A stretch of 64,000 bases of DNA, taken from Morinoia aosen (Eukaryota > Arthropoda > Malacostraca > Amphipoda > Talitridae). The stretch spans positions 35,195,891-35,259,890 of the forward strand of contig CM059573.1 of NCBI GenBank assembly GCA_030386875.1. Reading direction: 5' to 3'. The notes below the pieces were generated by a model that was not told where the DNA came from, made no database searches, and worked only from the letters and a program-made list of their open reading frames with translations. The translations under genes were made by a program, and so were the position numbers. This document shows positions 306-46,932 of this stretch, one piece after another (the first letter of the stretch is position 1; the number at the start of each line of letters is the position of its first letter).

Positions 306-316
306 TTTAAAAAATG
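306..316 (+). promoter_or_regulatory. TTTAAAAAATG start-overlapping promoter motif 1
   Basis: The exact 11-mer TTTAAAAAATG; its last three bases are the start codon of the gene beginning at 314. The same 11-mer recurs at four other viral gene starts. A promoter role is inferred from this placement and from analogy to start-overlapping late promoters of large DNA viruses. Confidence 0.6.
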
Positions 317-1426
317 GCGTTGATTGATATCAAAACTAAATCAGATTTACTAAACTTAGCAAAGAGTTTGAAAAAGCAATTCACAAATGATAGAATAATC
401 GAACAAGATTTATACCATGATGTTAAAAAAGTTTACAAACCATTGATTGAACCTTTATCTAAAATTGTTGACGAAACTAAACAAACTAGGTTGGCAATAA
501 AAGATTTACCTCATGAAAAACTTGAATCTATCCAAGGAAAACCTGTTGAGAAACTAGCTTTGCCATCTTCTGAATCCAACACTGTAGTTGGGCCTATCGC
601 ATTGAATTTCTTGCGTTTTGAATGGAAACATGGAAATGAGTATGACAAAGCTTATGAAATTCGTTGGGATGGAAGTAAAGTTATGCTAGGAAATAAAAAG
701 GTAGATATTTTGGGTAATGATTTGAAAATTGGAGATAGAATATACGAAGGCAAAACTGGATTATGGGAATTATTAACAAAGCAAAATCCTATTGATTTTA
801 GGGACGAAGATAAAAATAATTATTATGATATGCTGTATTCAACTGATGCTTATTTGAAGGATGACGGTACCATAAAAGCAAATAGGGGTGAGAAATATTC
901 TAAATTTACCAAACCCTTCTATCGAATAGTTCAACGAAAAAACGCTCAAGCTGCAGTTGAAACAATTAGATCAGCAAGTCCATCAAGTCGTGAATCAAGT
1001 CGTGAATCAAGCCCTGAACCAAGTCTTTTAAGAAACTCAAGAATAGTAGAATCTTCAATTTTCAGTCGACACAAAATTCCTTCAACAAGTCAGAGACCAA
1101 TTTTCGACCCGTCACTAAGGTCTACTTTTAGACCAACTCCTACTCCTATACCTTCTCCTACATCTTCTCCTATACCTCCTCGTCATCCTCACAGAGAGGA
1201 TTCAGACGTTTCAGGATCAGGTATTATTGTATTACCATCTAACATCAATGATCTTGTAAAATGACACCAGTTATTGTTCGGTTTGTTTACCGCTGGAAAT
1301 ACAGGAGTTTTTAATGAATTGCAAATACTTACGCATGAACTTTTAAAGCAAGGTCTATTAAATACTGCTGAAGTAAAGGTGTTTGATGATTTATTGTTTA
1401 AAAAATGGAATCTCAAAGCATTGTAA
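314..1426 (+). pseudogene. Unknown viral structural-type protein, one in-frame stop
   Basis: ATG at 314 lies in the TTTAAAAAATG motif. The frame runs 316 codons to an in-frame TGA at 1262-1264 and then stays open, with family-like sequence, to TAA at 1424-1426, so the intact gene probably had about 370 codons. Seen: a charged helical N-terminus (residues 1-85), a globular middle (about 90-215, rich in aromatic residues, with GPIALNFLRF and GLWELLT motifs) and a Ser/Pro/Arg-rich tail (about 220-300). I recognise this as a protein that accompanies integrase, penton and capsid genes in Polinton-like elements of insects, but I do not know its function. Its 3' end overlaps the next gene start at 1405 in another frame, typical of compact viral layout. 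Confidence 0.55.
1397..1407 (+). promoter_or_regulatory. TTTAAAAAATG start-overlapping promoter motif 2
   Basis: Exact 11-mer; the ATG at 1405 opens the penton-like gene. It lies inside the 3' end of the preceding gene. Confidence 0.6.
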
Positions 1427-2105
1427 TTAGTGAAAGAAAAAGTGACATAAGTATAAACTTTAGTCCAGCAATAGAATTGAACCAAAAATAAATTTCACGA
1501 AATGGCACTGGTTGGGTTAGACATGTATCATTCTATTCCTAACATTGATGAAAATAATAATAAATTGTATTATGAATTAAATTGTGTTGAAAATGTAATT
1601 ACACTTCCAACAGGATGTTATGAAATAGAAAGTATAAACGAATTCATTCAAAAAACATTGGCCGGCTTTATTGAAATCAAAGCAAATACTAATACTTTGA
1701 AATGCGTCCTAGTTCTCCATTCATCTACGTTAAAAGTATTTTTCAATAAAGAAAAATCTTTAAATACAATGTTAGGATTTGGAGAAATTATCTTAGAAGG
1801 TGTTGGAGAACATGAAAGTAAAAATATAGTGAACATAATGTCTGTTAACGCAATACTCGTTCATTGTAGCGCAATTAACGGCTCATACCTCAACGGTTCT
1901 TTGCATAATATTTTATATTCCTTTTTCCCCAAACGTCCCACCAGGATATAAAATTTTAGAAAATCCAAATAAACCAATTTATCTACCGATATATCAACCT
2001 TTACTCTATGATTTGAGAACTTTGCTTACTGATCAAAATGGACATGCTCTGAATACTAGAGGTGAAGAAGTAACTGTTCGATTACACCTAAGATCTAGAA
2101 ATTGA
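1405..2105 (+). pseudogene. Penton-like minor capsid protein, frameshifted
   Basis: The start is ATG 1405 in the repeated promoter motif. The first frame stops at 1489-1491; similarity continues in another frame from about 1490 to 1951 (149 codons from ATG 1502) and then, after a second shift near 1935-1945, to TGA 2103-2105. Seen: a tract around SIPNIDENNN, a YEIESINEFI segment, and a C-terminal block ending in GEEVTVRLHLRS. Known: insect Polinton-like elements encode a single jelly-roll vertex (penton) protein with this motif order next to the major capsid gene. Here the assignment rests on recognised motif order and gene position, not on an alignment. Two frameshifts make it a pseudogene. 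The shifts sit in homopolymer-rich sequence. Confidence 0.6.
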
Positions 2106-2125
2106 AATAATTTGATAAAATTATC

Positions 2126-2136
2126 TTTAAAAAATG
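2126..2136 (+). promoter_or_regulatory. TTTAAAAAATG start-overlapping promoter motif 3
   Basis: Exact 11-mer; the ATG at 2134 opens the major capsid gene, 28 bases after the penton stop. Confidence 0.6.
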
Positions 2137-3402
2137 GATTCTTTAAGATGGAATGAAAATATTAAAGTTGATGAATCAATTGAAAAAAATTGAAACGCAT
2201 AACAATGAACCACAAATAGGTACTGATTTGAATCGTGAACATAATGATATCAAGATCATTATCCAGAATCAAGATCAGTTTGTATAACCTAGTAAAAGTT
2301 TTATATATATAGAAGGAGCTTTGAATGAAGAAGATGGAAGTGATTATAATTTTAAAGATGAAAAAATAACAATAATCAACAATGGATTAATGCATTTGTT
2401 TGATAGAGTTTCTTACAGAATTGGAGATGAAGAAATTGAAGGTTATAGTTACCCTGGAATTACAACAACTCTAAAAGGATTAGTTAGCTATCCCCGAAAT
2501 GTTAAAGGAAACATGATATTTTTCTGGAGCGTCGATACTAAGAAGAATGAAAAATCAAACGAAGGATTTAGCGATCGAAATGACTACTTAAGTTCAGCTA
2601 ATGGGAAATTCAGCGCTGCTATCCCACTTGAACATGTGTTTGAATTTTGTGAAAATTATAAGAAGGTAATTTATGGAGTGAAACATGCTCTGACTTTAAG
2701 AAGAGGTGATAATTCTAATGCTATATTCAAATCAGATGAGAAAGATGCAAACCAGCAAGATAAAGTAGTTGATGGTAAAATTACTATTACAAAATAATTT
2801 GGAATATGCCAGCTTACAAACTGTCTGATGAGTATAAAATAAAGCTATATCGTCAAATTAAGGATAAAGTAACATTACCTATTCCTTATTTGAATAGACA
2901 ATTGGAACAAACAATTGTAAACTCTCAACAGAAATTCTTAGATTGGACTTTAACTCCAAATTCAGGAACTCAAAGACCTCGATATATAATTTTAGCGTTC
3001 CAAACTAAGAAAGCTAATTCACAAGCTGTAAACAATGCAATTTTCGATCATTGTAACTTGACGAATGCATATGTTCAGCTGAATAATGAACGATACCCTG
3101 ATCACAATTTACAGATTGATTTCGATTCTAACAATTATGCTATAGCTTATAAGATGTTAATAGATTATGTACCTAATGAAAATTGTGCTATCGAATACAG
3201 ACACTTTAAATATTTGTATCCCATCTATGTGTTTGATATCAGCAGACAAAATGAACGTATCAAGGAAACTACAATTGATATTAAAATTAAAGCAGAATTT
3301 AAAACCAATATTCCTGATGATACACATGCATATGCACTGATTCTATCTGACAGAGTAAATCGATTGCAATCTGACGGTGATAAAATGAGTTTAAACTACT
3401 AA
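2134..3402 (+). pseudogene. Double-jelly-roll major capsid protein, broken
   Basis: Three frame segments make up one gene of about 420 codons: ATG 2134 to about 2190, then a shifted frame to 2797, then a third frame from about 2790 to the TAA at 3400-3402. An in-frame TAA also interrupts the second segment at 2285-2287. Seen: PRYIILAFQTKK, FDHCNL, YVQLNNERYPDHNL and a C-terminal DDTHAYALILSDRV block, the hallmark order of the insect Polinton-like major capsid protein. Known: such proteins trimerise through two jelly rolls to form the icosahedral shell (PRD1/adenovirus lineage). Position between penton and protease genes fits. Two frameshifts and one nonsense codon mean no full-length product from this copy. 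Confidence 0.65.
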
Positions 3403-3429
3403 AAATTAAAATATATTCACATAATAATG

Positions 3430-3440
3430 TTTAAAAAATG
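3430..3440 (+). promoter_or_regulatory. TTTAAAAAATG start-overlapping promoter motif 4
   Basis: Exact 11-mer; the ATG at 3438 opens the zinc-ribbon/hydrophobic protein gene. Confidence 0.6.
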
Positions 3441-3824
3441 TATTGTGTAAGGAGTAAGAAGAAAACTGATACTGATAATCCTCAATATTTAATTACAAAG
3501 AACAATAAGATACTGGTCAGAGGTATGTGTATTATTTGTGAAAAGACAAAGACTTCTTTTGTTTCTAAAAATACTGCGACGAAAGGGGGTTTTATATTTA
3601 CAATTCCAGCTTTATTAGCTGGCCTTGAGGCTGCTGGCTCTTTGGCTGGAGGTGCTGCTGCAATAGCATCCGCAGTTAATAAGAAAAAAGCTGACGATAA
3701 ACTCTTGTCAGAAACTAAAAGGCACAATGAAGCAATGGAAAGTAAGAGAGGTTCAGGTATACGGATAACTCCGAGAAAAAAACCTTCTGGAAAGGGTCTC
3801 TACTTGAAACCACCAAAGAAGTAA
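3438..3824 (+). CDS. DUF5679-like zinc-ribbon protein with hydrophobic segment
   Basis: 128 codons from an ATG within the promoter motif. Seen: an N-terminal zinc-ribbon-like module (residues 2-35) of the DUF5679 type, with CIIC at 31-34 but only one cysteine of the first pair (C3; position 6 is Ser where Cys is expected). A Gly/Ala-rich hydrophobic stretch follows at about 52-80, then a basic tail with RHNEAMESKRG and a GKGLYLKP motif. Known: Polinton-like elements of insects carry this combination just before the protease. A membrane-active or minor-virion role like adenovirus pVI is only inference. The frame ends where the protease frame becomes recognisable, so the two may once have been one polyprotein separated by a frameshift near 3800-3830. 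The missing cysteine suggests decay. Confidence 0.55.
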   Translation: MYCVRSKKKTDTDNPQYLITKNNKILVRGMCIICEKTKTSFVSKNTATKGGFIFTIPALLAGLEAAGSLAGGAAAIASAVNKKKADDKLLSETKRHNEAMESKRGSGIRITPRKKPSGKGLYLKPPKK

Positions 3825-4231
3825 TACCTAACCAACCATTATCTAAACATGAAATAGAATACTACATAAATATATTGAAAATTCCGAATTTTCGAGGTAT
3901 TTACATGAGAGATACTTTACCTAAACAACCTCTAGAAACGGAATGCGGAATCCTAAATTTAGACACTGAAAAAGGATTAGGAACGCATTGGACTTGTTGG
4001 TATAAGAAAGATAACATATGTTATTACTTTGACAGTTATGGTTTGATTTATCCAATTGAATTTAAAGACTACTCAACAGATTGTGTTGACATAATTTTCT
4101 TTACTTTCAAATTCCAGAAAATAGGTGATGTAATTTGTGGACATTCATGTCTAGAAATGCTGAAGCGTTTAGAAAATGAAAGCTTTCATGCAATTCTTTT
4201 AGATCTGTATAAAACCCCAACTAGTTTTTAG
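3824..4231 (+). pseudogene. Adenain-type cysteine protease
   Basis: The open frame runs to TAG 4229-4231 and has no promoter motif or convincing ATG; protease-like sequence begins at about 3830 (PLSKHEIEYY). Seen, numbering from the TTG at 3875: catalytic His38 in GTHW, Asp53 in YYFDS, oxyanion Gln81 and Cys88 in CGHSC. The seven-residue Gln-to-Cys spacing equals that of adenovirus protease (Q115/C122). Known: these ULP1-fold proteases mature capsid precursors inside the particle. All active-site residues are present, so the domain itself looks intact. Lack of its own start suggests it was fused to the upstream zinc-ribbon protein and separated by a frameshift. That makes it a broken gene part rather than an independent one. 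Confidence 0.68.
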
Positions 4232-4258
4232 AAAATAAACTACAGTTAATTTTTTTTC

Positions 4259-4269
4259 TTTAAAAAATG
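4259..4269 (+). promoter_or_regulatory. TTTAAAAAATG start-overlapping promoter motif 5
   Basis: Exact 11-mer with ATG at 4267, at the head of the long coiled-coil gene. An indel just after the ATG moves the main reading frame. Confidence 0.58.
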
Positions 4270-5588
4270 TATTGTGGAATATTTATGCAGCAAAGTTGGT
4301 CTTTTTACCTTCCTGTAAAGAAAATCATGAACATGAAAATAGTGAAAATATTTCTGATGGACTTTTGCAGAATGTAGAGCAAATAAAAAGTTTACTTGAA
4401 GATTCTAATATAGAGTCATTGAAAGACACAATTGAAGCTCTCAAAAATGAAAGAACTGAATTGGAATCAATTACAAACGAGTATGATGAGAATTACGTAC
4501 CTCTGAAAACAGATTTACAAGTGAAATTTTCTGATGTAGACTCAATCGTTAAATTCTTAGAGACGTTAATTTATGATTTATCTGAAAAGTTCGTTGCTCT
4601 TGAACCAAAAATTGTTTCAAATGATGAACGACTTTCAAGCATAGACTCAACATTGATGAAGAAAATTGATGAAATTGATACTAAATTTGAAAACATTGAT
4701 TCAAACATAACCAACCTAACAGACGTAAAAATTCCAGAGATTGGGGACAAATTGAAGAGTCTAGAGTCGGGTATTGAAACTAGAATTGATGAAAAGCTGT
4801 TAGCTAAAGAGTCAGCATTAACCGATCAGATTAAAGGAGTTGAAGCTAAATTTGAGCTTGTGGACTCTAAGATAACCAATTTGATTGATGTTAAAATTCC
4901 TGAGATTCAAGAGAATTTCAAGAATCAAGAGTCAGTTATAGAAAATCAAATGGATGAAAAACTGAAGACTTTAGAAACTAAAATCAATGATCAAATTGAT
5001 TCAAAGAACAAATTAATAAGTAATAAAGTTGAAGAACAAGAAATTAGTATAATTAATGTTGTGAATGAAAAAGAAATGAGCTTGCAGACATCACTTAATG
5101 ATCAAATTGAAGAAAAGCTGAAGAGTTTAGAATCAACACTGAACAATACTGTTGAAGAAAAAAGTAAAAGCTTAGAGGCACATCTAACTGATTTAAGTGA
5201 TAGAAACCTTTTTGTTATGGAAAGAACAGTAGCCTTAGCACCCTCGTTTGTTGAAGTTGACAATAAGCTGAAAAATTTAGAGTCAACCATAACCTCATCC
5301 AGCGAAGAAAAATTCAACGATCTTAACAAAATTATAATGGAATTACGAGCAGAGTCAGTCCCATTAAGAAAAATAGAAGAACTAGCTAAGAACTTGAGTG
5401 ATGTAGAAAGTCTTTTCCAGGAGTTTTCAAGAGACATTATTTCAAATCAGAATGAAATCAGTCAGTTCAAATTAATGCTTCAGAATGAAACTGATAAAAA
5501 TGTAAAATTAAACCAGGAAGTGGAAAGTTTGAGTGCCCGAGTAAACAATTTGATATCTATGAGAGTTAGAGAAAATTTAGAGAATTGA
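4267..5588 (+). pseudogene. Long coiled-coil (fibre-like) viral protein
   Basis: A frame of about 438 codons (4272-5588) without internal stops; its natural start is probably ATG 4267, out of frame by one base because of an indel at about 4270. Seen: after a short hydrophobic N-terminus (residues 1-15) nearly the whole protein is heptad-patterned and charged, with degenerate repeats of the form ESxIxxQIDEKLKxLE every 25-45 residues (about 130-320). No Cys or enzyme motif stands out. The repeat pattern resembles trimeric fibre stalks or phage tail-fibre shafts. A receptor-binding or vertex-fibre role is inference from shape and position after the capsid genes. The frame is otherwise long and clean, so this is the least damaged large gene of the virus block. 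Confidence 0.5.
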
Positions 5589-5597
5589 AAATTCTAT

Positions 5598-5608
5598 GTA
5601 TAAAAAAT
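5598..5608 (+). promoter_or_regulatory. TATAAAAAATG variant promoter motif 6
   Basis: One base different from the 11-mer seen at five other gene starts; the ATG at 5606 starts the last viral gene. Confidence 0.45.
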
Positions 5609-6303
5609 GATAGGCGTAAATATTTTTGGACAAGGAAAAAAATCATTTTTTATCTTCACAACCAGGACCTCCTGGAATAGGTTTTCAATATCTTGATGAA
5701 GATCAAAATTTCGATTTGAATAATAGAAAACTTGCAAATATTTCTTTTCCAATCGAAGAATTTGATGCTACGAATAAAAAATATGTTGACGAAGATTTGG
5801 AAAATTTGAGGCTTCATCTCAGAAAATATATAGAGGTAAGAGAAAATCTTATCAATGAAAATTATCAGTTCAGAAGTGATTCCATCCAAACATCTATAGA
5901 TGAGAATACTACAGGTTTTCAAGAAAAACTCAGGGAAATTATGACAAATCTCGATGAACATAGTAGAATATCTGAGGAAAAAATAGAGGTGATTCGAACA
6001 GGTACTTTAGAACATACAGACTTTTTGAAAAATGAGATAAAGAGGTTGGAAGAAGAGGAAATAAAAAGTGTGAAATTAGACTATGCAAATCTCGAGAGAG
6101 TATTCAACGATATGAGTTCATACATTGAAACATTTAGAAATAATCTTCATGAACAGGATAGAGAAACTATCATAAATACAAATGAAATAGAAAAATTGAA
6201 ACAGTCATCGCAGAAATTGGAGGATGATTACGCTGAGATAAAAAACAGATTAATATCGTTAGAGAATACTTTGAGAAGAGAAACCGTTGAACCGTTGAAC
6301 TAA
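5606..6303 (+). pseudogene. Short collagen/fibre-like coiled-coil viral protein
   Basis: ATG 5606 starts a frame that shifts at about 5635-5655; the main frame then runs to TAA 6301-6303 (about 220 codons). Seen: a short GPPGIGF collagen-like tract followed by a segment with the pattern fDLnnrKLaNIsfPieefDATnKKYVDe, which resembles the N-terminal part of tail-fibre-like proteins, then a coiled coil of charged heptads to the end. Known: similar proteins occur next to the long coiled-coil gene in insect Polinton-like elements. A role as second fibre or adaptor is inference. The frameshift near the start inactivates this copy. Confidence 0.45.
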
Positions 6304-10030: not shown

Positions 10031-10238
10031 TGTGCGAGGCGAGTAAAACACGGTAGAAGCTTGACGGTAGAGTTTATTGGTGAGAGCCAGGTGTCATTGG
10101 CAACAGGTGAGAACTGATACAGATTGAGCGCCCCAGGCTAGACAAGTGCGCCTTATATAGATTGCGAGACGACCTCAAGATATCAAGATAAACAGACACA
10201 GAAGACATGAGTAAGTGACGACACATCACTCGCGCACA
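10031..10238 (-). mobile_element. Gypsy element 1, 3' LTR
   Basis: 208-base LTR (TGTGCGAGG...CTCGCGCACA) directly repeated at 19821-20028, with about 10 differences by eye. A minus-strand TATATAAG box sits at 10153-10160. The flank before it ends in TTAC, and TTAC follows the other LTR at 20029-20032, giving a 4-bp target duplication. Confidence 0.9.
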
Positions 10239-10251
10239 TCACTCCCCCCCT
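10239..10251 (-). promoter_or_regulatory. Gypsy element 1 polypurine tract
   Basis: On the minus strand AGGGGGGGAGTGA abuts the 3' LTR, as expected for the plus-strand DNA primer of an LTR element. Confidence 0.8.
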
Positions 10252-11745
10252 GACACATCGGATGAGAAATAAACTCAAATTTAAAACGGTTAACCAAAAA
10301 ACTCAAAAAGAATTCGCAGAATGAACGAAAACCGCTGAACAAATTAACACGAAGTTAACAAGGAAAGTTAACAAAAGGTATTCAAAAATTAACGCGACAA
10401 CCCTAGGTTAAAGGTAACGCTATTACTTTAAATCGACAGTAATTTTGAAACGTCTCGCAACTCATACTATTAAAAAGTTAAAATGTATGCATCAAATTTT
10501 AAATAACTCACCAATACACCATCCAAGCCTTATTATAGTTATCGAACTTGGCAACAAGCACAAACAAGGGCAGCTAAGCGAATACGAAAAATATAATGCC
10601 CTGTTCAAACTTAACTTGAAACAACTCGATACATTATGTTAAATAATCATTAATTAAACCATCGCACAGTGACAATAACCAACTAAATACCGTCCACATA
10701 ATTATAATAAAACGCAACTAAAATAAACGAACATTTGCTAGTTACCAAAAAAACGCAAAACACATTTTAAATCAACTGATTTACATCTTTGTCTCCTACT
10801 AAATACGCAAAATAAATAAAAAAACATATATGAAAATTTAAAAAGACACATTGAAAAATTTATACACCACACAACACCGTAAAATTATCAATTATTAAAC
10901 GCGTAAACACTGTTTAAAAACGTTTTAAAACCTTCCATACCCTACAATCATGTAAAACATCAGATATAAGGATAAATAGCGATTAATATGGATTAATACT
11001 TAAAACGTAACGAAAAAAAACGGAACACTAAAGTTTCAGCAAGTTTTAGCAAATAGCAAAAGCAATCCCCAACAAGCGTAAGCAAACAACTAACTTACCG
11101 TATAATATGGCAACCAGCACGTCGACAGCATTAAGGAATTTTTTAATAAAAAACAAACGCCACATTTTCTCATATCAACAAAACTAATAAACGTAATCTC
11201 CAATAATTTAAAAAGGAAACAACTCCGAAAATTACATATTAAAAATATAGAAAGTATTGGAAAACAATCAAAAACACATCATCTTAGAACCAAAAACAGC
11301 CTTTAAATTAAATGAATTTAAATAACTTGATAATTGAAATAATTAAAATTTTTCTAAAATAAAAAATTTAACACCGCAAAATTACGCGCTGACATCAGAA
11401 AAAGCATACGACAGTAGTAAAATATAGGGTTAAAAACTTACTTCTAGCGGAACATGTTATATTAATAAACACATTTTTTATTATTTTTTAACGCATTTTA
11501 TTATTATTTTTTCAACGCATTTTCCAACTTTTTTAACGCTTGGAAATTTTCACTATTCCAATATTGAATTTCACTATTGAATTTTCACTATTTTTATTAC
11601 AAATTTTAATTACTTTTCAATCTAATTCACTGGATATTTACTTCCACTTGGCGATCTAATTTCCCATTGTAATTAATTTTCTAATTCCAATTTCTCCATT
11701 TAATTTCAATTCACCAATACTTCGCCGCTAATGTCAACGTTCGTG
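10252..11745 (-). other. Long 3' untranslated region of Gypsy element 1
   Basis: About 1.5 kb between the small 3' gene and the polypurine tract. It is very AT-rich with many TTAACG-type words and has no coding frame I can support (the 65-codon plus frame at 10445-10642 is antisense). Such a long noncoding 3' segment is unusual and may be the remains of a longer gene. Confidence 0.5.
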
Positions 11746-11747
11746 AC

Positions 11748-12059
11748 TTATGCTTGTTCTTGGTGGTTGTTGCACCTAGGTGACAACCTAGGTGCCCGCT
11801 GTAGCTGGTAATCCTCTAGGCGGTCCGAACGATCGGACAAAGACTCCAGACTACGCTTCGTGTAGTACACGACCGCCCCTAGTCCCATCGTAGTTATCAC
11901 CAGCAACATCACCAAGACGTCGGTGACGCTGTCTGGCAAGAGGTCCATACGTGATTTCGACTTCATTAATTCTTCGTAGAGTCCCTCATTTACCCCTTGA
12001 TTTTTGGCTATTGCCGACGCTAGGGTGTCCACGTCGACAAGGGACACTTGATTGCCCAT
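11748..12059 (-). CDS. Small extra gene: predicted N-myristoylated single-pass membrane protein
   Basis: About 103 codons from the ATG at 12057-12059 (MGNQVSLVDVDTL...). Seen: Gly2 and Ser6 fit the N-myristoylation consensus. A PDSVTDVLVMLLVITTMGLG segment leads into a hydrophobic helix (about residues 45-65) ending VVYY, then a basic/charged heptad region (SLESLSDRSDRLEDYQL). The second Gypsy copy has the same layout at 46498-46932. A polypyrimidine-CAG acceptor (TTTCCGTGCAG) lies 20-25 bases upstream on the coding strand, so expression from a spliced RNA is likely, as for env. It has no envelope features: no signal peptide, no Cys pattern, far too short. Function unknown; membrane targeting is inference from the motifs. 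Confidence 0.65.
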   Translation of the reverse strand: MGNQVSLVDVDTLASAIAKNQGVNEGLYEELMKSKSRMDLLPDSVTDVLVMLLVITTMGLGAVVYYTKRSLESLSDRSDRLEDYQLQRAPRLSPRCNNHQEQA

Positions 12060-12763
12060 CGCGAACACGTCCATGCAAATCCTGCACGGAAACAGATACA
12101 AAGACGATTAGCATGACCAAGAAAAAAACAACCCATTATCCTATGTTATGCATACCTAAAAAAAAACAAACGAAAACGCTTGCTGCAATGACCACAGTCA
12201 TGAAGAAAAATAAATTCGAGTCGAACCCTCGGTCGGGTAATAACCAACCACTGTATGAAATTTAATTTACTTGTGCTGATAACAGAACATTCCAAGTGCC
12301 GCAGCGTCAAGCCAGCCCATCTCACAGGATGAACTGCAACCTCAGCGATTGCATTTAGCAGTCGCAGAATTCACTCACCCATAAAAATGTCAATTCAGCA
12401 ACATTTCCAGGTTATCAAAGCAACGCTTTAAGCAAATTGGAAAGGACAAATAAGGCGTCTTAGAGACAAGGGTTATCAACCCTCAAGGTTACAATAGATA
12501 GTTACACATTCCTTTCAACATTCAGGTTAATATCAAGCAATATCCCAAATTAATCTATAACAACGCAGCACCAAAAAATCTGTAAACACAACACATAAAA
12601 TATAATATACGGATTACTGAGAATATTATGAAACACAACGCATATTACACAGCAAAAACTCATTAACCTATGATTATTAACCTTAACGCAACTGTTAAAC
12701 AATGTAACATAGTAAATCGTAACTCGTTGAGTCGTTGCGACGTCAAAAACTTGTCGTTTTAAC

Positions 12764-14237
12764 TCACAGTTTAACCTTCCTCAAGGGTAACAAGTGATTT
12801 AAGTTACTCTTATAAATTTTGGAACCAATTTTGACCTCAGCCCAATTACGCTTAACCTTTAGAACCACAGCTGGCCCTAGCCAGGTCAATTCAAGTTTAT
12901 GCTTTTTATCGTGATTTTTTTGAAAGAACCCGGTCCCCCACCTTCACGTCTTTATTTCGACGCTTGATGTTTCTGTAAAGGTTTCTTTCCGCTGTATTAT
13001 TTATAATCAAATTTCTAATATTTTCTACTGTCCGGGCAGCTTCTTTTGCCCGAAAGTTTACCAGATCCAATTCTTCATCATAACTGTAAGTTACAGAATC
13101 AAAACTCTCGGATTGATAGAATGCGCAGGTATCTCGATTAAACATTACGAAACTAGGAGTTTCGCCTAAAGTAGAATTCAATGCGTTGTTCAGTGCATTT
13201 TCAACCACCTCCAGCAACTGATCCCACTCTGCATGAGGGAGCGAATTGACATGAAGTTTTAGCAGATTGGTAATTTTCTGGTTATTTCTCTCTAATATAG
13301 CGTTGGAATGAGGACTGTAAGCCAATACCTCTTTTTTCGCGATGGCGTGAACGTTAGCAAATTGCTTAACCACTACTGACTTAAACTCGAAAGCGTTATC
13401 GCTTATTAGGGTTTTAGGAAAACCGAAACTACAGAAACAATTACTTAAACATGAAATTACCGTTTCCGTACGACGATTAGAAGTTGCATACAACTTGCAA
13501 AACCGAGAAAAAATATCAATAATTATCAACATGTACTTATTGCCATTATCTTTACCTTTTAGTGGACCTAAATAGTCCATGGAAACGACTTCAAATGGTT
13601 CTTTCGCTATTGGAGCAGTCAAAATTTTATTTGGCAGAGAAGGTCTTGCCTTTAATAATTTACAAACTTCACAATCTCGTACGAAATTTCGAACAATCGT
13701 TTTTTCCAAATCATTATAGTATTTAATTTTAAATTTAAAAAGGGTGTGTATATCATCAGTATGATACATTGAGTGAATAGCCAATATACCTTTACCCATT
13801 AAGGAATTAGGTACCACTGCTGTCAAAATTGTGCTAGGTCGGTTGTCAATTTGTCTACGTCGGTACAGAATGTCGTTGAGAATTAAAAATTTTTGTAGGT
13901 CTTGAATTTTCGAAATACTACCATGCAGTAAAGCTTCCTTAACTTCTATGCAAAAAGGATCTTTCTCCTGCTCGTCAATAAATTCTTTAATAGTCCAAGA
14001 AATCTCCTTTTCTTTTGGTACATAGTCTATAAGCTTCGGGCGAGCTTCTTTACTTGCTGCGTCGTCAACACTGTCGCTAAGTGGTGGGTCAACCACCTCA
14101 CGTCTAGTCATTTCTCTTTTTTTCTGCGGTCGCGTCTCCATGATACAGACGTCTGATTCAAGCGCGGATTCCAGAGCATCACAGCGCTCTAGTTCTTTAA
14201 AGGCTAATTTTTCATCGTTAATGGGAAGTCTGCTCAA
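12764..14237 (-). pseudogene. pol: Gypsy element 1 pol: integrase
   Basis: The long frame 14237-12906 joins by frameshift to a C-terminal piece ending at TGA 12764-12766. Seen: HHCC zinc module (IHSMYHTDDIHTLF...CEVC), then the D,D,E core with Asp in VSMDYLGP, Asp in LISDNAFEF and Glu in SNAILERNNQ, then a GDRVLSK / LTWLGP (GPY/F-like) C-terminal domain. Known: the enzyme inserts element cDNA into the chromosome. The frame break sits in an A-run near 12917-12923. The N-terminal residues of this frame are the end of the RNase H connection. The catalytic triad is intact, so most damage is recent-looking frameshifts. Confidence 0.85.
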
Positions 14238-14286
14238 ATAATCCGCTACGACATTTTGTTTCCCAGGTAAATACTTTACAATAGGA

Positions 14287-14838
14287 TCAAACGAATGAAC
14301 GTTTATACATGGTTGAATCTTCAGGGAGTCTTTTTTTAAATAGTGGCGCCAATGGGCGATGATCCGTATAGATACGAATAGGATACCCCGTAATCAAGTA
14401 TTTAAAATATTTTAGAGCTGAATGAATCGCGAAGAACTCTTTCTTAGTCGTGCTATATCGCTTCCGACTCGAGTTCGAACTTTTACTATAATAGGCCACA
14501 GGGCGTAAAATTTGATCGCTTGAATCTTCCGTCTGCATCAAGAAGGCTCCGATACCAGAGTTAGCAGCGTCCGTAAATAAGTGGAAGTCCTTAGCGTCAT
14601 CAGGATGTCTTAAAACTGTGTCAGAAGTCAAAGCAGATTTGATAAAAACAAAACTTTTCTGGCATTCGTCGGTCCACGTATAGTCAACATCTTTTCTTAA
14701 TAGGTTGTACAGAGGGTAAGCCACCTCAGCAAAGTTGGGCAAGAAATTACGGAAATAGTTAGCTAAACCTAGGAACTGTTGTAATTCCTTCACATTAACA
14801 GGAGCCCTGCAAGTCTGCAGTTTTTCCGAATTTTTCAT
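14287..14838 (-). pseudogene. pol: Gypsy element 1 pol: RT thumb and RNase H
   Basis: Contains the RT connection (ELQQFLGLANYFRNF) and RNase H domain with FTDAANSGIGAFL, KEFFAIHSALKYFKYL and IYTDHRPLAPLF, i.e. the conserved D, E, D residues. It degrades the RNA strand during reverse transcription. A frameshift near 14838 separates it from the RT palm, and a small deletion near 14280 (compared with the second copy at 43040-43080) shifts it away from integrase. Confidence 0.85.
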
Positions 14839-15860
14839 CTGATACCATCTGCAGCAATAATGTGTCCCAGATATTCAAGTTCTTTTTTGAAAAACTTACA
14901 TTTTTCAAGTTTTAAAGACAAGTTACCCGAACGAAGCATCTTAAGTACGCTTCCAATGTCAGTCAAATGCTGACTTTTTGTTTTGGAAAATACTAATATA
15001 TCGTCTAAAAAGACGAATGCTAATTTGCCTAGGATAGGTGCAAGGGCAGAGGTCATCACTCTCTGGAATGCACTTGGACTGGTACTCAAACCAAACGGAA
15101 CACGTGCAAACTGGAATTTCCGATAATTCTCACTAAAAGCCGTAAACTTTCTACTATCTTGATCCAACTCGACCTGGTGAAAGGCCAAACGCAGGTCCAG
15201 GTTAGTGAACCACGCGTTTCCTCCTAGAGTCGATATAATTTAATCAATTCTGGGTATTGGGTAAGCTTCCTTCACTAATACTTTATTTAGAGCCCTAAAA
15301 TCAATCAATGGCCGGAGCTCCCCGGACTTCTTTTTAACTACTATGACCCGAAAATTCCATTCGGATATCGATTCCTCAATTATTCCCTGTGAAAGCATGT
15401 CATTAGCGATTTTCATCACCTCTTCTTGATACTTATGGGGGATTCTGTATGGAGCTAAATTTAGTACAGGTGCATCCGGTTTCAACTGAATCCGGTGCGT
15501 CATAAGGTCTATAGTCTCCCCTTCTAACGTAACTACATCACGAAATTCATTTAATAAATTTACCAAAGGTAACTGCATGTCCTCTTCGTAACATGAAATA
15601 TCATCATTAGTTAAACAACGTCGTACTTCCTGCTTTACTCCACAAGACACACCTACTTGTGCATTAACTCCCCACTCCTCGTCACCAGCGAGAACTTTCT
15701 TTCTACCGCGAGCGTCAGCCTCCAACCCAAGTTTCCCTTCGACTATGGCCTTAATTCCACCACCAGCCGAGACAAACTGCATTGTATCCGACACCGCGTC
15801 AAAATTTATTTCCACACTATTAGCATCTCTAGGTGCTGTTTCAACACTTGTCATGTACAT
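14839..15860 (-). pseudogene. pol: Gypsy element 1 pol: reverse transcriptase
   Basis: Seen: APYRIPHKYQEEV, SGELRPLIDFRALNKV, NLDLRLAFHQ, RVPFGLSTSPSAFQRVM and the catalytic FVFLDDILVFS (a FLDD form of YxDD), then LEKCKFF and EYLGHII. Order and spacing are those of Ty3/Gypsy reverse transcriptase. A single in-frame TAA (15240-15242) replaces the Glu codon present in the second copy, and a frameshift lies near 14838. The linker N-terminal of the palm begins after a frameshift near 15855. Confidence 0.88.
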
Positions 15861-16387
15861 TTCGTTCCGATCTCATTAGCTGCAATTAATTCAACGTTGC
15901 ACAGCATCGTATTCTCGGTAAAACAAATAGCATCCTCATGTGCATTTAAAACCATTACAGGTACCAACCCATCTTCTTCGATACGAGCAATGGATTCAGC
16001 CAAAAGTGCTCCATTTTCAAGGCATCTTTTCAAAATTACATACTCTCCTGGAGTTGCTTTTTTAACAAAACCGTACACTATCTTCATCGAGTTACCGGGC
16101 ACTTCCACCTGAGTGCAATGCACTGTCAACGGCCTTGAGCTCTGTCTCGCCTCAGCCGCGGCCACGATTTTTTTTTCTCTGCAGTTACTATTTTTAGCGG
16201 GGTCACTACCCCCGTGGCTCTTTCTGGCCACGACAACATCGGATATCAGACAGTCGCTGTTCACGATTTTTTTCATCGCTACTTCTCTGCTAAGAACCGG
16301 TTCCATTTTTAACTCATAGAAAGGGATTGAAATACCTTCCCAATGAAGGGTTCTACCTTTGAAATTAATGATAGCATCACTCAGCAC
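15851..16387 (-). pseudogene. pol: Gypsy element 1 pol: protease-RT linker
   Basis: This frame carries the segment between protease and RT (ILKRCLENGALLAESIARI, FTENTMLCNVEL), matched by the second copy at 41260-41500. It starts inside a 112-bp tandem duplication (16301-16412 and 16413-16524) that repeats the end of the protease domain and, because 112 is not a multiple of three, breaks the frame. Confidence 0.75.
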
Positions 16388-16526
16388 ATCGCGTCCTAGA
16401 ATTAGATCGTAATTCCATTTTTAACTCATAGAAAGGGATTGAAATACCTTCCTAATAGAGGGTTCTATCTTTGAAATTAATGAGAGCATCACTCAGCACA
16501 TCGCGTCCTAGAATTAGATCGTAATT
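16301..16526. repeat. 112-bp tandem duplication inside pol
   Basis: TTCCATTTTTAACTCATAG recurs exactly 112 bases apart (16301 and 16413). The two units differ at about five or six positions, so they are not freshly duplicated. Each ends with the same CCTAGAATTAGATCGTAATT stretch. Confidence 0.88.
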
Positions 16527-16997
16527 GAATTTCGCTTCCTTCACTATCAGAGCACTAGTTTTTAGTACTCTGTCAGTGCCTGGAATTGAAATCTTCAGCT
16601 CTACTTCTCCGCTAACGTTACTTTTACCATTGATGCCTTTTACCATTAAACGACTCTGCTTAACTTCTTCGTTCAGATTCTTGATTCGTTTGTAACTTAT
16701 TAAGCATTTTTCTGAACCGCTATCTAGCAAGACACCTAAATACTGGTCATTATTTGTTAATATTATCGTAGGCTTATTGGATTTTTTAAACGCAACCAAA
16801 CCAGCGCCTTTTTTATTATGATTGCCGTTTACGACACTAGCGGAGAAATAGGCCTCTACTGCTTTGCTTTGCTGTTGTCTTTTATCTGCAAGCTCTTCGT
16901 CTTGCAACAATTTGTACCTATTTTCACATTTGAACAATGGATCAATGACAAATTCAAATTCGTTTGTCTCGGGTGTATCTGGTGCAATTTCGACCAC
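16452..16997 (-). pseudogene. pol: Gypsy element 1 pol: aspartic protease
   Basis: The frame begins after a stop with GTG at 16997 and shows the retropepsin active site LLDSGSEKCLI (Asp at about residue 92; DSG instead of DTG), then a NYDLILGRDVL flap/helix motif near the C-terminus. It cleaves the Gag-Pol precursor. The frame ends in the 112-bp duplication. The second Gypsy copy encodes the same domain at 40447-41000. Confidence 0.85.
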
Positions 16998-17157
16998 AGC
17001 TTAGAGATTAACGAGAGAGCTGGCCGCCTTCCTCTCGGGCTCAATCAAATTCTCCCTGTTACCATTACCTTTTTCTACTCCTCGCTTAAAAAATCCCGAG
17101 CACCTGACTCGGCATCTGCAAAATGTACTTCACTCCTACCGCGCGATTGGCCTCTGT

Positions 17158-18553
17158 TTACATTGCCCCCCGTAGATAAGCCTTGAATCCTCTTATTTCA
17201 CTTCCGGTGGCTCTACAATGTTTCACCAAGTGTGCAACGCCGCAAGCGAAACAACCTAGCCCGCTACTTCCTCTTGGTTTAAACTGACCTTTCTGAGATC
17301 TACATTCATAATGACCAACAACTGAACATGAATTGCAAAATAGAAAACCCCGTTTTTTAGTTCCCGCATCATATTTAGATCCCGCAAAATGCCCTGAAGC
17401 CTGAACAGAACTACTAGGATTACTGTCTGTTCTTACAGTATTGCACTCTATAGAACCTATTGTTTTATCTCCTATGTAACCACTAAATTCTCTCGCTCTT
17501 CCACGAGGATTTCGCACCCAGGGTCTAGGACCTGCAATCCTGCGTTGCCCTACACGATTCCTACGGTGGTTTCCGAAGTTCCCATAGAAAACTTCACTCT
17601 CCTGAAGGGAGTCTTGCGCCTCAACGCAGCTATCAAGACCACTTGTTACATCTACTACGTAACTTTCATTATCATTTCGGACTGGGTACTGGACCGCAAG
17701 GATTTTTTTTTGTTTCAGCTTGGCTCCTAACAGCAGCAATTAAACGTGCTAGGAGCTCTTCTGATGAACCAATTTGACACTCGAAAACTTTCTTCGCGAA
17801 GGATTGATCCAACAAGGGACCCAAAGTAGTTAAAGCGAGACTGTACACAATGCTGTCTGCAACGAATCGTTTGAGTACTGCCTGCGTTGTGCAAGCTTGG
17901 TAGTAGGGATGACGTTGCCAACCCAACGTATTTGAATTTAACGCATGATCAGAAAGTTTACGTATTTTTGCAAAAACTGTTACTAATTGTGCTGCCAAAG
18001 CACCGTTGCGGACCAGTTGGAGTTCATTTAAATCGCATGCAAAGGCGTGAAGTGACTTCTCACCCTTGCACACGTAAATGTCGTCCAATATTTTTACAAC
18101 TTCATCAAAAGTGTAATTTAGATCACTATTCACTAACTTGGTCACTACCGAATTGAAGTCACCAACCTGTTTCTGGGCAGACCTTACCAGAAGTTCCTTC
18201 TTTGCCTCATCACTATTGACCTCTGGCAAAAGTGACGTATAGGCTTTGAGATTCATTATATGTGTTCCCAATGTTTTATTTTCAAGGAACTCCGGATCTG
18301 CAAATCTACGTCTACCTCGGAAAGTCGGGATCTCAGCGCTCGACATTATGGTTCCTGCTCTAGGAGGCATGTTTGCCACTATATCGCGAGCTAACTGAGT
18401 CCTATCATCATTATTACTAGTGCTAGCACTAGCGCTGGGAGTAGTCATTGTGGTATTTTGGGGAGGTGTAAATTTAGGAGTGCTTATCCTACCACTTTTC
18501 GTTTTTATTGGTTCTGAGCGGACGAATTCCTCTGAATCTGATATGTCCGACAT
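17158..18553 (-). pseudogene. gag: Gypsy element 1 gag, frameshifted
   Basis: The capsid part runs from ATG 18553 (MSDISDSEEFV) to 17672 and the nucleocapsid part from about 17705 to 17158. They join across a run of nine T (17703-17711 on +), where a slip of one base has separated them. Seen: an acidic/Ser-Thr-rich N-terminus, a helical capsid domain (about residues 95-285), then RG-rich sequence and two zinc-knuckle-like motifs (CNSCSVVGHYEC and CFACGVAHLVKHC). Known: Gag forms the particle shell and binds RNA. The A-run could in principle be a programmed slip site, but it lies inside gag rather than at the gag-pol border, so mutation is more likely. Confidence 0.75.
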
Positions 18554-18569
18554 GAATATTACCACAATT

Positions 18570-19795
18570 TACTTCAAGAATTTCTTATTAACCGTTAGTA
18601 CAACCAATAATATGTAAAAAATGTCACACTATGCAAAAATACACATCTAAATTCCAATAATATACGCTCTAGAAAATATACCATCAATACAAGTACACAA
18701 TCAATTTCTTCCCCGGTATTTGGAACGGTAAAACTCCAAAAGGTACAAACTCCAGATAAAAATCCTTAAAATTTTCAGATATAATTCGAGACACTCTTAT
18801 GAGGGGAAGAGGAAGTACAATCTCCAGAAAAAAATTCTTGAACTCTACAGATAAACTTGGCAACACTCCCAAAACACCCTTGGGAAGACTTCAAAAAAAT
18901 CATAAAATGCCGGAACCCTTTTACTTCTTTACCCGCTGGGGTATTCAAACAATCGAGCCACCTAAACCCTTTTATCAACCCTGCAAATCACAACAGAAAA
19001 AATTGCACTTACTCTGGAACATTGAAACAGAAAGGGTGTTGTTTATTCTGCTAAATCCAACGACCGCGCGTCTCAGTGCGTTTCACTACGTACAAGAGGT
19101 GACTGAAATTACTGACAGAGACAGAGGCTGAGAGCCTTGCTCAACACAGAGTGCATACCCGCATTGCGACAGAAAAAAACAAACCTCGAGCAGCAACGCT
19201 CTCGGTACACACGCACTGAAGAAAAAAAATTCAGGAGAACACTTAACTGCAAAAAAAAGAGTCGGGCTGCTGGGTAAGACGCCGCTGGTGCTCGATGTCG
19301 AGGTGCAGGGTAAAACGCCGCTGATAAAACACGATGTTACACTATGTCGAAAGGCGTACTCGTTGATGATAACCTTTGATTACGTACCACAGTTCACTTA
19401 ACACTGCAACAGTTAATCAATTACGTAGTAATGTATCTCACACCAAGTTCTTGTTCACTCAAAAAATTGTTCCTTTACTCATTACCCGTCGCGGGGGAAG
19501 CTACTCCAAATGTCACTTCGAAGACAATTTCAATATCGTCTCCAGATTCGTAAACCAGCACCCTCGTGCGAAATGGAGATCCGATGTTGAGTCAAATAGT
19601 GAACTCGGTGTAAACTTCCACCAGTGCCTCCACTGGGATTTGGAATCCGAAGACAATAACGGACGGTTGCGGTTGCCACACTTGGTTATTGTTATTGGTA
19701 ATCATTTGAGACTGTATATAAAGTCTTCAATTAGTCAGCCTCGGGACACTTTACTTTACTTCTTATCTTCCTTATTAATATACACGAACACGTGA
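18570..19795 (-). other. 5' leader of Gypsy element 1
   Basis: About 1.2 kb between the primer-binding site and gag. No coding frame on the element strand can be supported; plus-strand frames here (e.g. 18799-19131 and 19376-19795) are antisense and show no known domain. It likely holds the packaging signal and a splice donor for the small 3' gene, but I could not fix the donor. Confidence 0.5.
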
Positions 19796-19800
19796 GTTTA

Positions 19801-19815
19801 CCACAGACTGCGCCA
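19801..19815 (-). promoter_or_regulatory. Gypsy element 1 primer-binding site
   Basis: Five bases inside the 5' LTR the minus strand reads TGGCGCAGTCTGTGG, close to the TGGCGCAGTCGG-type primer-binding site shared by gypsy/17.6/297-like elements. The exact primer tRNA was not determined. Confidence 0.7.
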
Positions 19816-19820
19816 CCACA

Positions 19821-20028
19821 TGTGCGGGGCTAGTAAAACACGGTAGAAGCTTGACGGTAGAGTTTATTGGTGAGAGCCAGGTGTCATTGGCAACAGGTGA
19901 GAACTGATACAGATTGAGCGCCCCAGGCTAGACAAGTGCGCCTTATATCGGTTGCGAGATGACCTCAAGATATCAAGATAAACAGACATATAAGGCAAGA
20001 GTAGGTGACGACACATCACTCGCGCACA
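19821..20028 (-). mobile_element. Gypsy element 1, 5' LTR
   Basis: 208 bases, partner of 10031-10238, with the same ends (TGTGCG/CGCACA). About ten differences between the LTRs imply the insertion is not recent. Followed by TTAC, matching the TTAC before the other LTR. Confidence 0.9.
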
Positions 20029-45567: not shown

Positions 45568-46497
45568 CAACGTTACAACGTATTGTTTCACCTATAACTA
45601 TTTTTGCGACTATAATGTTTCAGACGTGACAAGTTACCATTTTGCTAAAAATACGACTGTGTGACTATGTATTAGGTAAATTAATTATTAACGTTACTTC
45701 CTGCGCATCATATTAATCTCGTATATGCTATATCTCGTTTCATATTAATCACCTGTATGCTTGTGTTCAATAATCTCGTGTGTTCTAGTATTAGCGATTT
45801 TCATTGCTAGCAGCAAAGGAATTAACCTTCTAAACAGGTTACCCCGTGTTGAAGTTCAAGTTTGTAAGTAAAAGTCAAGATTAACGAATATCACAGAGAA
45901 GATCCTTCAACGAATGTTCTCACGATCTGTGAAATTGATATGTTTCACAACAGTCAATAATTATGTTCAAATTTTGATGCTGAACAGCCAATTAAAAATG
46001 ATGGGCGAGTTCCGCAATTGCTAAATGCATCACATCAACAGAGCACCAATGTTGATGAAAAAATCAACCTCGCGACTTGAGGACATCAACAAATTATTCG
46101 AAATACATCGTGAATATATCGTGAGAAACTTCCGGGTTGAAACTGAACACTGTTGTTAACTTATTTTGATTGACAATCAGTTTAATAGCTTTTCACTTCA
46201 ATGTTTTCACAATCAGTTAACTGTCTCAGAAATATTTGGTATATCAGTTAGCATTTAATAATCTCAGTTAATAGTTAGACTTTCACTGTTAACTTTCAAA
46301 TTTAAACAACGAATACATTTATATTTTAATTACACTTATAATTGTGTTTAGGATTATATGTTTCATTGGGTGTGTAACATTATAAAAATTTGTGGCCATG
46401 CTAATAGTCTTGGTTTCGTTTCCGTTGCAGATCCGGGTGGCTGATACACGAGTAAACAATTACCACTTCAAATACTAAATACGGGTAACATTACATT
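45568..46497 (+). other. Intergenic/intronic region before the small 3' gene of Gypsy element 2
   Basis: AT-rich with no frame. Near its end TTTCGTTTCCGTTGCAG (about 46415-46431) is a strong splice acceptor 66 bases before the ATG at 46498. Confidence 0.55.
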
Positions 46498-46932
46498 ATG
46501 GGAAACAAGATAAGTAGTATCAGTGTCGAAACACTAACTGCAGCTCTAGTTGACACTAAAGGCCAAATAACCAACGACTGGATAGCAGCAAACAGTAACA
46601 CGGACTGGATACCAGACCGAGTGAGTGATGTGCTTCTCATGATCCTAATTCCTAATCATAGTCATGATAACCCTAACAGTCCTAGTCTATTATTTGCGAA
46701 AGCAAATGGAGCTTTTGGCCGAACGCATACAACAAGAGGATTTTCAGTTACGTCGAAACATCCTCAAAACAAAGGGAACATTATCAGAAATGTAACCACT
46801 GTAACTGTAGGGGGACACGTAGTAATAAATTTGCAACCCATCTTGAAATGGCCTAGGCACCCAAAACGACCGGCGCGGGCTAACATGCCAAAGCTGACAA
46901 CGACTTTCGAAATGCTGTCAACGGAGGTATAA
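46498..46932 (+). pseudogene. Small extra gene of Gypsy element 2: N-myristoylated membrane protein, frameshifted
   Basis: Starts MGNKISSISVETL, with Gly2 and Ser6 as in the copy of element 1, then PDRVSDVLLMIL. A one-base shift near 46656 breaks the hydrophobic helix; in the neighbouring frame the helix continues (IVMITLTVLVYYLRK) into a charged coil (ELLAERIQQEDFQLRR). The original product was thus about 100 residues, like element 1. The 144-codon frame as it stands is an artefact of the shift. Shared motifs PD.V.DVL and DxQLxR between the two copies argue for selection on a protein rather than chance. Confidence 0.65.

What the first reader, a model, noticed from the sequence alone, without database searches (positions are those of the whole stretch)
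11748..12101. Extra 3' gene of a Gypsy family: predicted myristoylated membrane protein from spliced RNA
Both Gypsy copies, on opposite strands and diverged, encode after pol a protein of about 100 residues starting MGN..S (myristoylation consensus), with a PD.V.DVL segment, one membrane helix ending VYY and a charged coil. Both have a pyrimidine-rich TTTCCGT(G/T)CAG acceptor just upstream. It is where env sits in errantiviruses but is not an envelope. A lipid-anchored accessory protein could steer Gag to membranes or act in transfer between cells; that part is speculation.
Basis: partly seen in the sequence, partly recalled or inferred. Interest (0 to 1): 0.86.

Follow-up and report, generated by a model that had tools for sequence, protein, structure and literature searches.

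The report
Crustacean retrotransposon's small membrane-protein gene
Jumping genes in a beach-hopper crustacean carry, where retroviruses keep their envelope gene, a small and selectively maintained membrane-protein gene that resembles the insect sORF2 proteins thought to carry such elements directly from cell to cell, so envelope-free spread may reach beyond insects.

Summary
Copy 1 (10031-20028, minus) is a Gypsy element with LTRs, a GTAA target duplication and, after a broken pol, an intact 103-codon MGN frame (12059-11748). Copy 2's homologue is broken inside the membrane segment; 12 of 12 relatives read stay open through it. The host is a talitrid amphipod (COX1 98% to Platorchestia). Of 70 family-A copies read, 67 keep at least 96 codons; median pairwise dN/dS is 0.15 (380 pairs, none at or above 1). 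An integrase match lies upstream in 56 of 70, and a branch-point plus acceptor block in 64 of 70. A moderate donor-like site in the leader is kept in 10 of 11 aligned leaders, though other GT sites are kept as well. MGxxxS/T is present in 64 of 70; one membrane helix (about residues 48-66) ends Tyr-Tyr and is followed by two basic residues. These protein traits match sORF2/FAST-like proteins of insect elements, linked to envelope-independent soma-to-oocyte transfer. Differences: crustacean host, place after pol, predicted splicing, longer ectodomain, and an in-frame upstream AUG in family A. Splicing, lipidation and transfer remain unshown. Verdict: new variant of a known kind.

The parts
19821..20028 (-). 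5' LTR of copy 1 (TG...CA, 208 bp; GTAA next to it)
   Evidence: the LTR repeat is 95% identical over 215 bp
10031..10238 (-). 3' LTR of copy 1, preceded by a polypurine run (AGGGGGGGAGTGA), followed by GTAA
19007..19015 (-). candidate splice donor in the leader, AGA|GTAAGT, junction 19013|19012, upstream of gag
   Evidence: donor-like GT in 10 of 11 aligned leaders; score 6.8 in copy 1; motif also in L078, L107, L108. Prediction only; other GT sites are as conserved (19801 in 10 of 11; 18187 and 18166 in gag in 11 of 11)
17158..18565 (-). gag frames (two overlapping ORFs; first ATG 18553, no N-terminal MG)
   Evidence: no Pfam capsid match, so called gag by position and by Cys/His-rich stretches that I read
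16452..16997 (-). retropepsin part of pol
   Evidence: Pfam RVP 2.1e-7
14287..15860 (-). RT / RNase H part of pol, in several broken frames
   Evidence: RT_RNaseH_2 2.3e-30 for 14287-14838; the RT stretch aligns with copy 2's RVT_1 frame
12906..14237 (-). integrase part of pol
   Evidence: Pfam rve 1.2e-13
12082..12119 (-). branch point CTAAT plus splice acceptor block; junction 12082|12081
12072..12074 (-). upstream in-frame ATG (MDVFA-MGN), T at -3
11748..12059 (-). MGN gene: 103 codons plus stop, sORF2/FAST-like membrane protein
11862..11918 (-). predicted membrane helix, residues 48-66, ending Tyr-Tyr, then Thr-Lys-Arg
46393..46430 (+). homologous branch point plus acceptor block of copy 2; junction 46430|46431
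46498..46650 (+). copy 2, first part of the MGN frame (ectodomain and start of the membrane segment)
   Evidence: E 1.2e-10
46652..46792 (+). copy 2, second part (rest of the membrane segment and tail) in a different frame; copy 2 is broken here
   Evidence: E 1.7e-7

Best explanation
The MGN gene is a crustacean counterpart of the sORF2/FAST-like genes of insect LTR retrotransposons. A singly spliced RNA (donor in the leader, perhaps at 19013; acceptor 12082) would bring the MGN start near the 5' end of the message, as env is expressed in retroviruses and errantiviruses. The product, about 100 residues, would be myristoylated at Gly2 when made from the MGN start. It would span the plasma membrane once with the N-terminus outside, and present a basic foot and a helical tail inside that gathers Gag capsids. 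At contacts between somatic cells and oocytes it would bring two membranes together so that capsids pass directly, without an envelope. Shown here: gene, position, selection, homology between two families, conserved acceptor sequence, motif and hydrophobic segment. Inferred: splicing and donor, topology, lipidation, capsid binding, fusion or transfer.
For: Purifying selection between families (86 codons, pN 0.42 vs pS 0.72) and within family A (median dN/dS 0.154 over 380 of 2211 pairs, those with dS 0.1-0.8; 32 non-overlapping pairs pN/pS 0.25). An integrase match upstream on the same strand in 56 of 70 (40 of the 70 show only about 1 kb upstream). Acceptor pattern in 64 of 70 and in copy 2 plus all 12 family-B relatives read. 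Donor-like GT in 10 of 11 aligned leaders. MGxxxS/T in 64 of 70; best hydrophobic 19-mer at least 1.66 in 68 of 68 copies scored; more Lys/Arg after than before the helix in 65 of 68. Tyr at the helix end (alignment column 70: 65 of 67) and basic residues at columns 72 and 73 (64 and 65 of 67). Length 97-107 in 65 of 70. AF2 with 31 rows: helices 7-19, 21-35 and 43-88, mean pLDDT 87 at residues 51-60. The protein traits, though not the splice sites, are among those listed for sORF2/FAST-like proteins in PMC11952523, where 7 of 22 lepidopteran cases also lie after pol.
Against: No sequence relationship to any sORF2 or FAST protein was tested (I held none; the paper itself says homology searches were unproductive). 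The stretch before the helix is about 47 residues, not about 30. The basic patch is only two residues. Whole-chain AF2 confidence is low (62.7). The leader donor scores 6.8, below the cut-off; stronger donor-like sites lie in gag (18187, kept in 11 of 11), its 9-base conservation is only at the 90th percentile of the leader alignment, and among 20 further leaders only 3 had a match over the place and 2 of these show the motif. Six of 70 copies lack the acceptor pattern. An upstream AUG in family A may bypass the myristoylated start. Other non-coding islands upstream are as conserved as the acceptor. Fusion by sORF2 has itself not been reproduced in standard cell-fusion assays (PMC11952523, Limitations).
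Confidence: 0.6

Rival explanations
1. Assembly factor, not a transfer factor: the membrane protein gathers Gag at a membrane of the cell in which it is made, replacing a membrane signal that Gag lacks, with no fusion.
For: Gag of copy 1 starts MSDISDSEEF, with no N-terminal MG; the MGN protein has a myristoylation motif, a hydrophobic helix and a charged helical tail.
Against: Many intracellular Gypsy elements manage without such a protein (general knowledge), and the similar insect proteins are tied to cell-to-cell passage.
Confidence: 0.22
2. A membrane pore or host-defence antagonist (viroporin- or Vpu-like accessory protein).
For: Size (103 codons), single hydrophobic helix and 3' accessory position fit such proteins (family traits recalled, not tested).
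Against: Conserved N-terminal MGNxxS, Tyr-Tyr at the helix end and a conserved ectodomain are not explained by a bare pore.
Confidence: 0.1
3. Shrunken remnant of an errantivirus-type env: the membrane anchor of a lost envelope kept as a fossil.
For: Same genomic place as env.
Against: Purifying selection over the frame, ectodomain included; no env-sized sense frame after pol in either copy; two families share the same short protein.
Confidence: 0.04
4. The protein is real but starts at the upstream AUG (MDVF-) and is not myristoylated; MGN is internal.
For: In family A the V and F codons of the extension differ mostly at third positions (0.54, 0.40) against first and second (0.06-0.20); the in-frame AUG is present in 65 of 70.
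Against: The upstream AUG always has T at -3 (65 of 65) while the MGN AUG has G at -3 in 47 of 67; L043 has a stop between and L041's AUG is out of frame. In family B no AUG lies between the acceptor and MGN in 12 of 13 sequences (copy 2 included), and none after a later CAG in the thirteenth, L120.
Confidence: 0.15

Closest known systems
sORF2 of MDG1-group retrotransposons (412, Stalker2, Mdg1) and sORF2/FAST-like proteins of insect Metaviridae (PMC11952523; abstract, Results, Discussion, part of the legends read)
   Same: Env-less Metaviridae; forward-strand short gene; MGxxxS/T; one membrane helix; Tyr at its end; basic residues after it; helical tail; some lepidopteran cases also after pol
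   Different: Crustacean host; after pol in both families here; predicted spliced RNA, whereas MDG1 full-length RNA showed no evidence of splicing; longer ectodomain (about 47 vs about 30); short basic patch; in-frame upstream AUG in family A
FAST proteins of fusogenic reoviruses (features from PMC11952523 and from the abstract and passages of PMC12945298)
   Same: Small, one helix, acylation signal, predicted N-out/C-in
   Different: Non-enveloped dsRNA viruses; shown fusogens; no sequence relation tested
Env of errantiviruses (gypsy group; recalled)
   Same: Place after pol; env is made from a spliced RNA (recalled)
   Different: No env-sized frame; about 100 residues only
Troyka elements (PMC12440569; abstract and passages seen)
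   Same: Gypsy-like LTR elements also known from crustaceans
   Different: Troyka ends in CG...CG with 3-bp duplications; copy 1 ends in TG...CA with GTAA

Membership tests
sORF2/FAST-like proteins of Metaviridae (Voichek et al.) | Encoded in the sense strand of a Metaviridae element without env | tested here: met
   Pol domains by Pfam, LTRs and GTAA, no other frame of 80 codons or more on the element strand after pol in copy 1
sORF2/FAST-like proteins of Metaviridae (Voichek et al.) | Length 63-107 residues | tested here: met
   103 in copy 1; 97-107 in 65 of 70 family-A copies (the others 14, 83, 90, 115, 117); 96 in 6 of 12 family-B relatives read, the other 6 differ in the tail
sORF2/FAST-like proteins of Metaviridae (Voichek et al.) | N-myristoylation motif MGxxxS/T at the start | tested here: met
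   64 of 70 copies; the real start in family A is uncertain because of an upstream in-frame AUG
sORF2/FAST-like proteins of Metaviridae (Voichek et al.) | Single membrane helix | tested here: met
   Kyte-Doolittle 19-mer at least 1.66, median 2.12, in 68 copies scored; long helix 43-88 in AF2. No dedicated predictor was run
sORF2/FAST-like proteins of Metaviridae (Voichek et al.) | N-out / C-in topology | tested here: inconclusive
   Positive-inside count agrees in 65 of 68; a rule of thumb only
sORF2/FAST-like proteins of Metaviridae (Voichek et al.) | Ectodomain of about 30 residues | tested here: not met
   Helix starts at residue 48 (median of 68). The paper offers this length as a possible filter, not as a definition
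sORF2/FAST-like proteins of Metaviridae (Voichek et al.) | Tyr just after the membrane helix | tested here: met
   Alignment columns 69 and 70: Tyr in 56 and 65 of 67
sORF2/FAST-like proteins of Metaviridae (Voichek et al.) | Juxtamembrane polybasic patch | tested here: inconclusive
   Lys in 64 of 67 and Arg/Lys in 65 of 67 at columns 72 and 73, but only these two in a row
sORF2/FAST-like proteins of Metaviridae (Voichek et al.) | Amphipathic motifs outside and inside | tested here: inconclusive
   Helical moments computed for three copies without a null model
sORF2/FAST-like proteins of Metaviridae (Voichek et al.) | Moves capsids between cells / membrane fusion | not testable with these tools
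   Needs microscopy and genetics
MDG1 group of Metaviridae | Pol falls in the MDG1 clade | not testable with these tools
   I had no named reference pol set; best database hit for the pol query was 57% over 59% of it, unnamed
MDG1 group of Metaviridae | sORF1 and sORF2 upstream of gag | tested here: not met
   ATG frames found in copy 1's leader before gag are 29-42 codons and do not start MG (which listed frames of 25 codons or more); other copies' leaders were not scanned for this
Errantivirus (env-bearing Gypsy) | Env glycoprotein gene after pol | tested here: not met
   No env-sized sense frame there in either copy

The most novel reading that the evidence does not exclude
In amphipod crustaceans a Gypsy lineage has exchanged the envelope scheme for a FAST-like one wholesale: a spliced subgenomic RNA delivers a small lipid-anchored fusogen at the very place of env, with two AUGs in one family setting the ratio of lipidated to unlipidated protein. 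If so, envelope-independent soma-to-germline transmission is older or more often invented than insects alone suggest, and is regulated by splicing and start choice.
Probability: 0.3. Interest if true: 0.8.

Novelty: new variant of a known kind. Interest (0 to 1): 0.62.

Why it matters
The retrotransposon cases named in the text of PMC11952523 that I read are from Diptera, Lepidoptera and Coleoptera. A strongly selected, high-copy counterpart in a malacostracan crustacean, with a conserved acceptor of its own, suggests that envelope-free transmission may be a general strategy of arthropod Metaviridae. In the held papers, retrotransposon with 'FAST protein' and crustacean gave none; 'FAST-like' with retrotransposon gave three listings, two of them on the subject; the other searches listed no crustacean case that I recognised. 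The many near-identical family-B copies make the idea testable in living animals.

Tried and rejected
Sequence search of the 103-aa protein against the 5.8-billion protein set found no candidate; PDB and Pfam gave only weak matches, the Pfam ones below cut-off. Viral contigs held no confirmed relative of the pol piece or of the MGN protein. The strongest donor-like site near the gag start (18188|18187) I set aside because, in copy 1, it is in phase 0 from the gag ATG and would not enter the MGN frame (my reading); it is kept in 11 of 11 aligned leaders, so the donor stays open. Env remnant, Troyka and MDG1 filing were rejected or left open as told in the membership rows. The fold search was left out because both models are of low confidence. 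A search with the gag piece was asked twice, not answered and dropped.

Cautions on counts: the 70 family-A copies are the best 30 plus 40 that I chose down the table from 120 others, all retrieved by protein similarity, which favours conserved copies; 3 were dropped before dN/dS (L019, L031, L033). (profile) and 99 used 67 and 52 copies. Of 40 leader stretches fetched 10 of the first 20 went into the alignment with copy 1. The 12 family-B sequences were chosen by me from 149 rows. One search made the acceptor look far more conserved than its surroundings, with a longer stretch, shows other islands (about -340 to -240) as conserved, so the contrast holds only against the variable -200 to -70 stretch. 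The stricter acceptor rule lists copy 1's site but not copy 2's.

Full report
What is there. Copy 1 occupies 10031-20028 on the minus strand. Its LTRs (19821-20028 and 10031-10238) start TG and end CA, are 95% identical, and GTAA stands on both outer sides. Retropepsin, RNase H and integrase domains lie between them by Pfam, with an RT stretch homologous to copy 2's RVT_1 frame, in broken frames. After integrase comes one sense frame of note: 103 codons at 12059-11748, starting MGNQVS. Copy 2 (plus strand, alignable from 40402) matches copy 1 at 63% DNA identity over pol. It has the homologous gene at 46498, but the homology leaves the frame inside the membrane segment: piece A and piece B match copy 1 separately, each beyond all 2000 shuffles, and both match a profile of 67 genomic copies.

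Host. The window lies in a 1.99-Gb assembly of 29 contigs. A COX1 copy with 8 TGA codons on a 561-kb contig (translated with code 5) is 98% identical to Platorchestia sp. and 93% or less to the other amphipods listed. So the host is a talitrid amphipod crustacean or very close to one (lineage), not an insect.

Selection. The two copies stand for two diverged families. Over 86 aligned codons pN is 0.42 and pS 0.72 (near saturation), and differences fall 41/28/59 on codon positions 1/2/3; an integrase stretch is more constrained (ratio about 0.05, same call). In the genome, 150 family-A matches were scored out of 2907 first-look candidates, 142 without an internal stop. For family B, searched with 51 residues, 150 of 2832 were scored, 147 without a stop and, by my count, 53 of 150 at 98% identity or more, which suggests recent spread. 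I read 70 family-A copies. 67 keep 96 codons or more; the 380 of 2211 pairs with dS 0.1-0.8 give a median dN/dS of 0.154, none at or above 1; 32 non-overlapping closest pairs give pN/pS 0.25. Mean differences per codon position are 0.235, 0.148 and 0.507. Retrieval by protein similarity biases these values downward, but the third-position pattern and open frames at a median 26% divergence are hard to get without selection (simulation).

Position and expression. A C-terminal integrase match lies upstream on the same strand in 56 of 70 copies, 669-1302 bases before MGN and mostly 820-940; the other 14 show none in the 1.0-1.5 kb held. Between them, CTAAT...TTTCCGTGCAG forms a branch point and acceptor whose pattern is kept in 64 of 70 copies, is present in copy 2 and its 12 relatives read and is 85% identical between the two window copies. 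Nine sites by a stricter rule occur on both strands of the window against 4.3 expected, so the motif alone is not rare; its conservation is the argument, and other upstream islands are equally conserved within family A. In the leader, a GTAAGT-type site at 19013|19012 keeps a donor-like GT in 10 of 11 aligned leaders and recurs in L078, L107 and L108. Its score is moderate (6.8, with a cut-off of 7, did not list it), and other GT sites are as conserved: 19801 (10 of 11, weak), 18187 and 18166 inside gag (11 of 11). So the acceptor is well supported and the donor is a candidate. A donor before gag and an acceptor before the 3' gene would give a retrovirus-like subgenomic RNA. No RNA data were at hand.

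The protein. MGxxxS/T is present in 64 of 70 copies. The best hydrophobic 19-mer starts at residue 48 (median) and scores 1.66 or more on the Kyte-Doolittle scale in all 68 copies scored; Lys and Arg are more frequent after it than before it in 65 of 68. M1, N3, D9, V10, P42 and D47 are invariant and G2, S6, Y65, Y66 and K68 nearly so in 31 rows. AF2 gives short helices 7-19 and 21-35 and a long helix 43-88, with good confidence only in the membrane part (alone).

Start codon. In family A 65 of 70 copies have an in-frame AUG five codons upstream (MDVFA, MDVFY and the like). Its -3 base is T in 65 of 65, whereas the MGN AUG has G at -3 in 47 of 67. The V and F codons of the extension vary mostly at third positions, so it is probably translated. 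Leaky scanning would give two forms, only one with Gly2 free for myristate. In family B no AUG lies between the acceptor and MGN in 12 of 13 sequences, copy 2 included; for L120 the script looked only after a later CAG.

What it resembles. The preprint PMC11952523 (abstract, Results, Discussion and part 1 of 2 of the figure legends read, passages 67) describes sORF2 of the MDG1 group: a short membrane protein with MGxxxS/T in four of six and FAST-like layout, found with capsids in follicle-cell protrusions that enter the oocyte; a Tyr after the helix emerged in its wider set. It lists 105 similar genes in 29 organisms (its text names Diptera, Lepidoptera and Coleoptera), 7 of 22 lepidopteran ones after pol, and reports no evidence of splicing in the full-length MDG1 RNA. 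The gene studied here shares most listed protein traits and differs in host, in predicted splicing, in ectodomain length and in the upstream AUG. FAST features were also seen in the abstract and passages of PMC12945298. Membership in the MDG1 clade by pol could not be tested.

Judgement. That a selected 3' gene for a small membrane-type protein exists, with a conserved acceptor before it, I hold very likely. That it serves envelope-independent passage between cells I hold more likely than not (0.6), on resemblance alone.

Noticed in passing
window 2321-3402 (+), within 314-6303: Polinton/adintovirus-like region (name recalled): a double jelly-roll capsid-type domain split over two frames (Pfam DJR-like 2.4e-13 and 7.6e-35), with unassigned and coiled-coil-like ORFs beside it.
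   Followed up: partly
window 16301-16524 (-): A 112-bp tandem duplication inside pol of copy 1 (96% identical).
   Followed up: no
window about 12400-12300 (-) and 46000-46029 (+): A second conserved non-coding island before the acceptor (about -340 to -240 from MGN within family A). A stretch ending GCTAAATGCA looks shared with copy 2, but the spacer alignment as a whole was not above chance (13 of 300 shuffles as good). RNA element or true end of pol, unknown.
   Followed up: partly
L020-L022, L026, L028, L031, L038, L041, L042, L044, L049, L057 (L054 similar): A sub-family with two acceptor-like CAGs nine bases apart (CAGGATACGCAG) before MGN; in L043 the first CAG reads CTG and the second is kept.
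   Followed up: no
leader alignment of copy 1 and 10 of L071-L090: An almost invariant TTTTTGCAGTTAAGTG stretch upstream of the candidate donor: acceptor-like, unexplained.
   Followed up: no
G000:C27 (55-72 Mb), C26, C22, C28, C29: A COX1-family search finds many oxidase genes mostly without TGA codons on C27, as if that contig held bacterial sequence, and mitochondrial-type copies with TGA on C26, C22, C28 (561 kb) and C29.
   Followed up: no
window 44771-45361 (+): About 300-bp direct repeats (91% identical) between integrase and the acceptor of copy 2, in a stretch that does not align with copy 1; probably an insertion.
   Followed up: no
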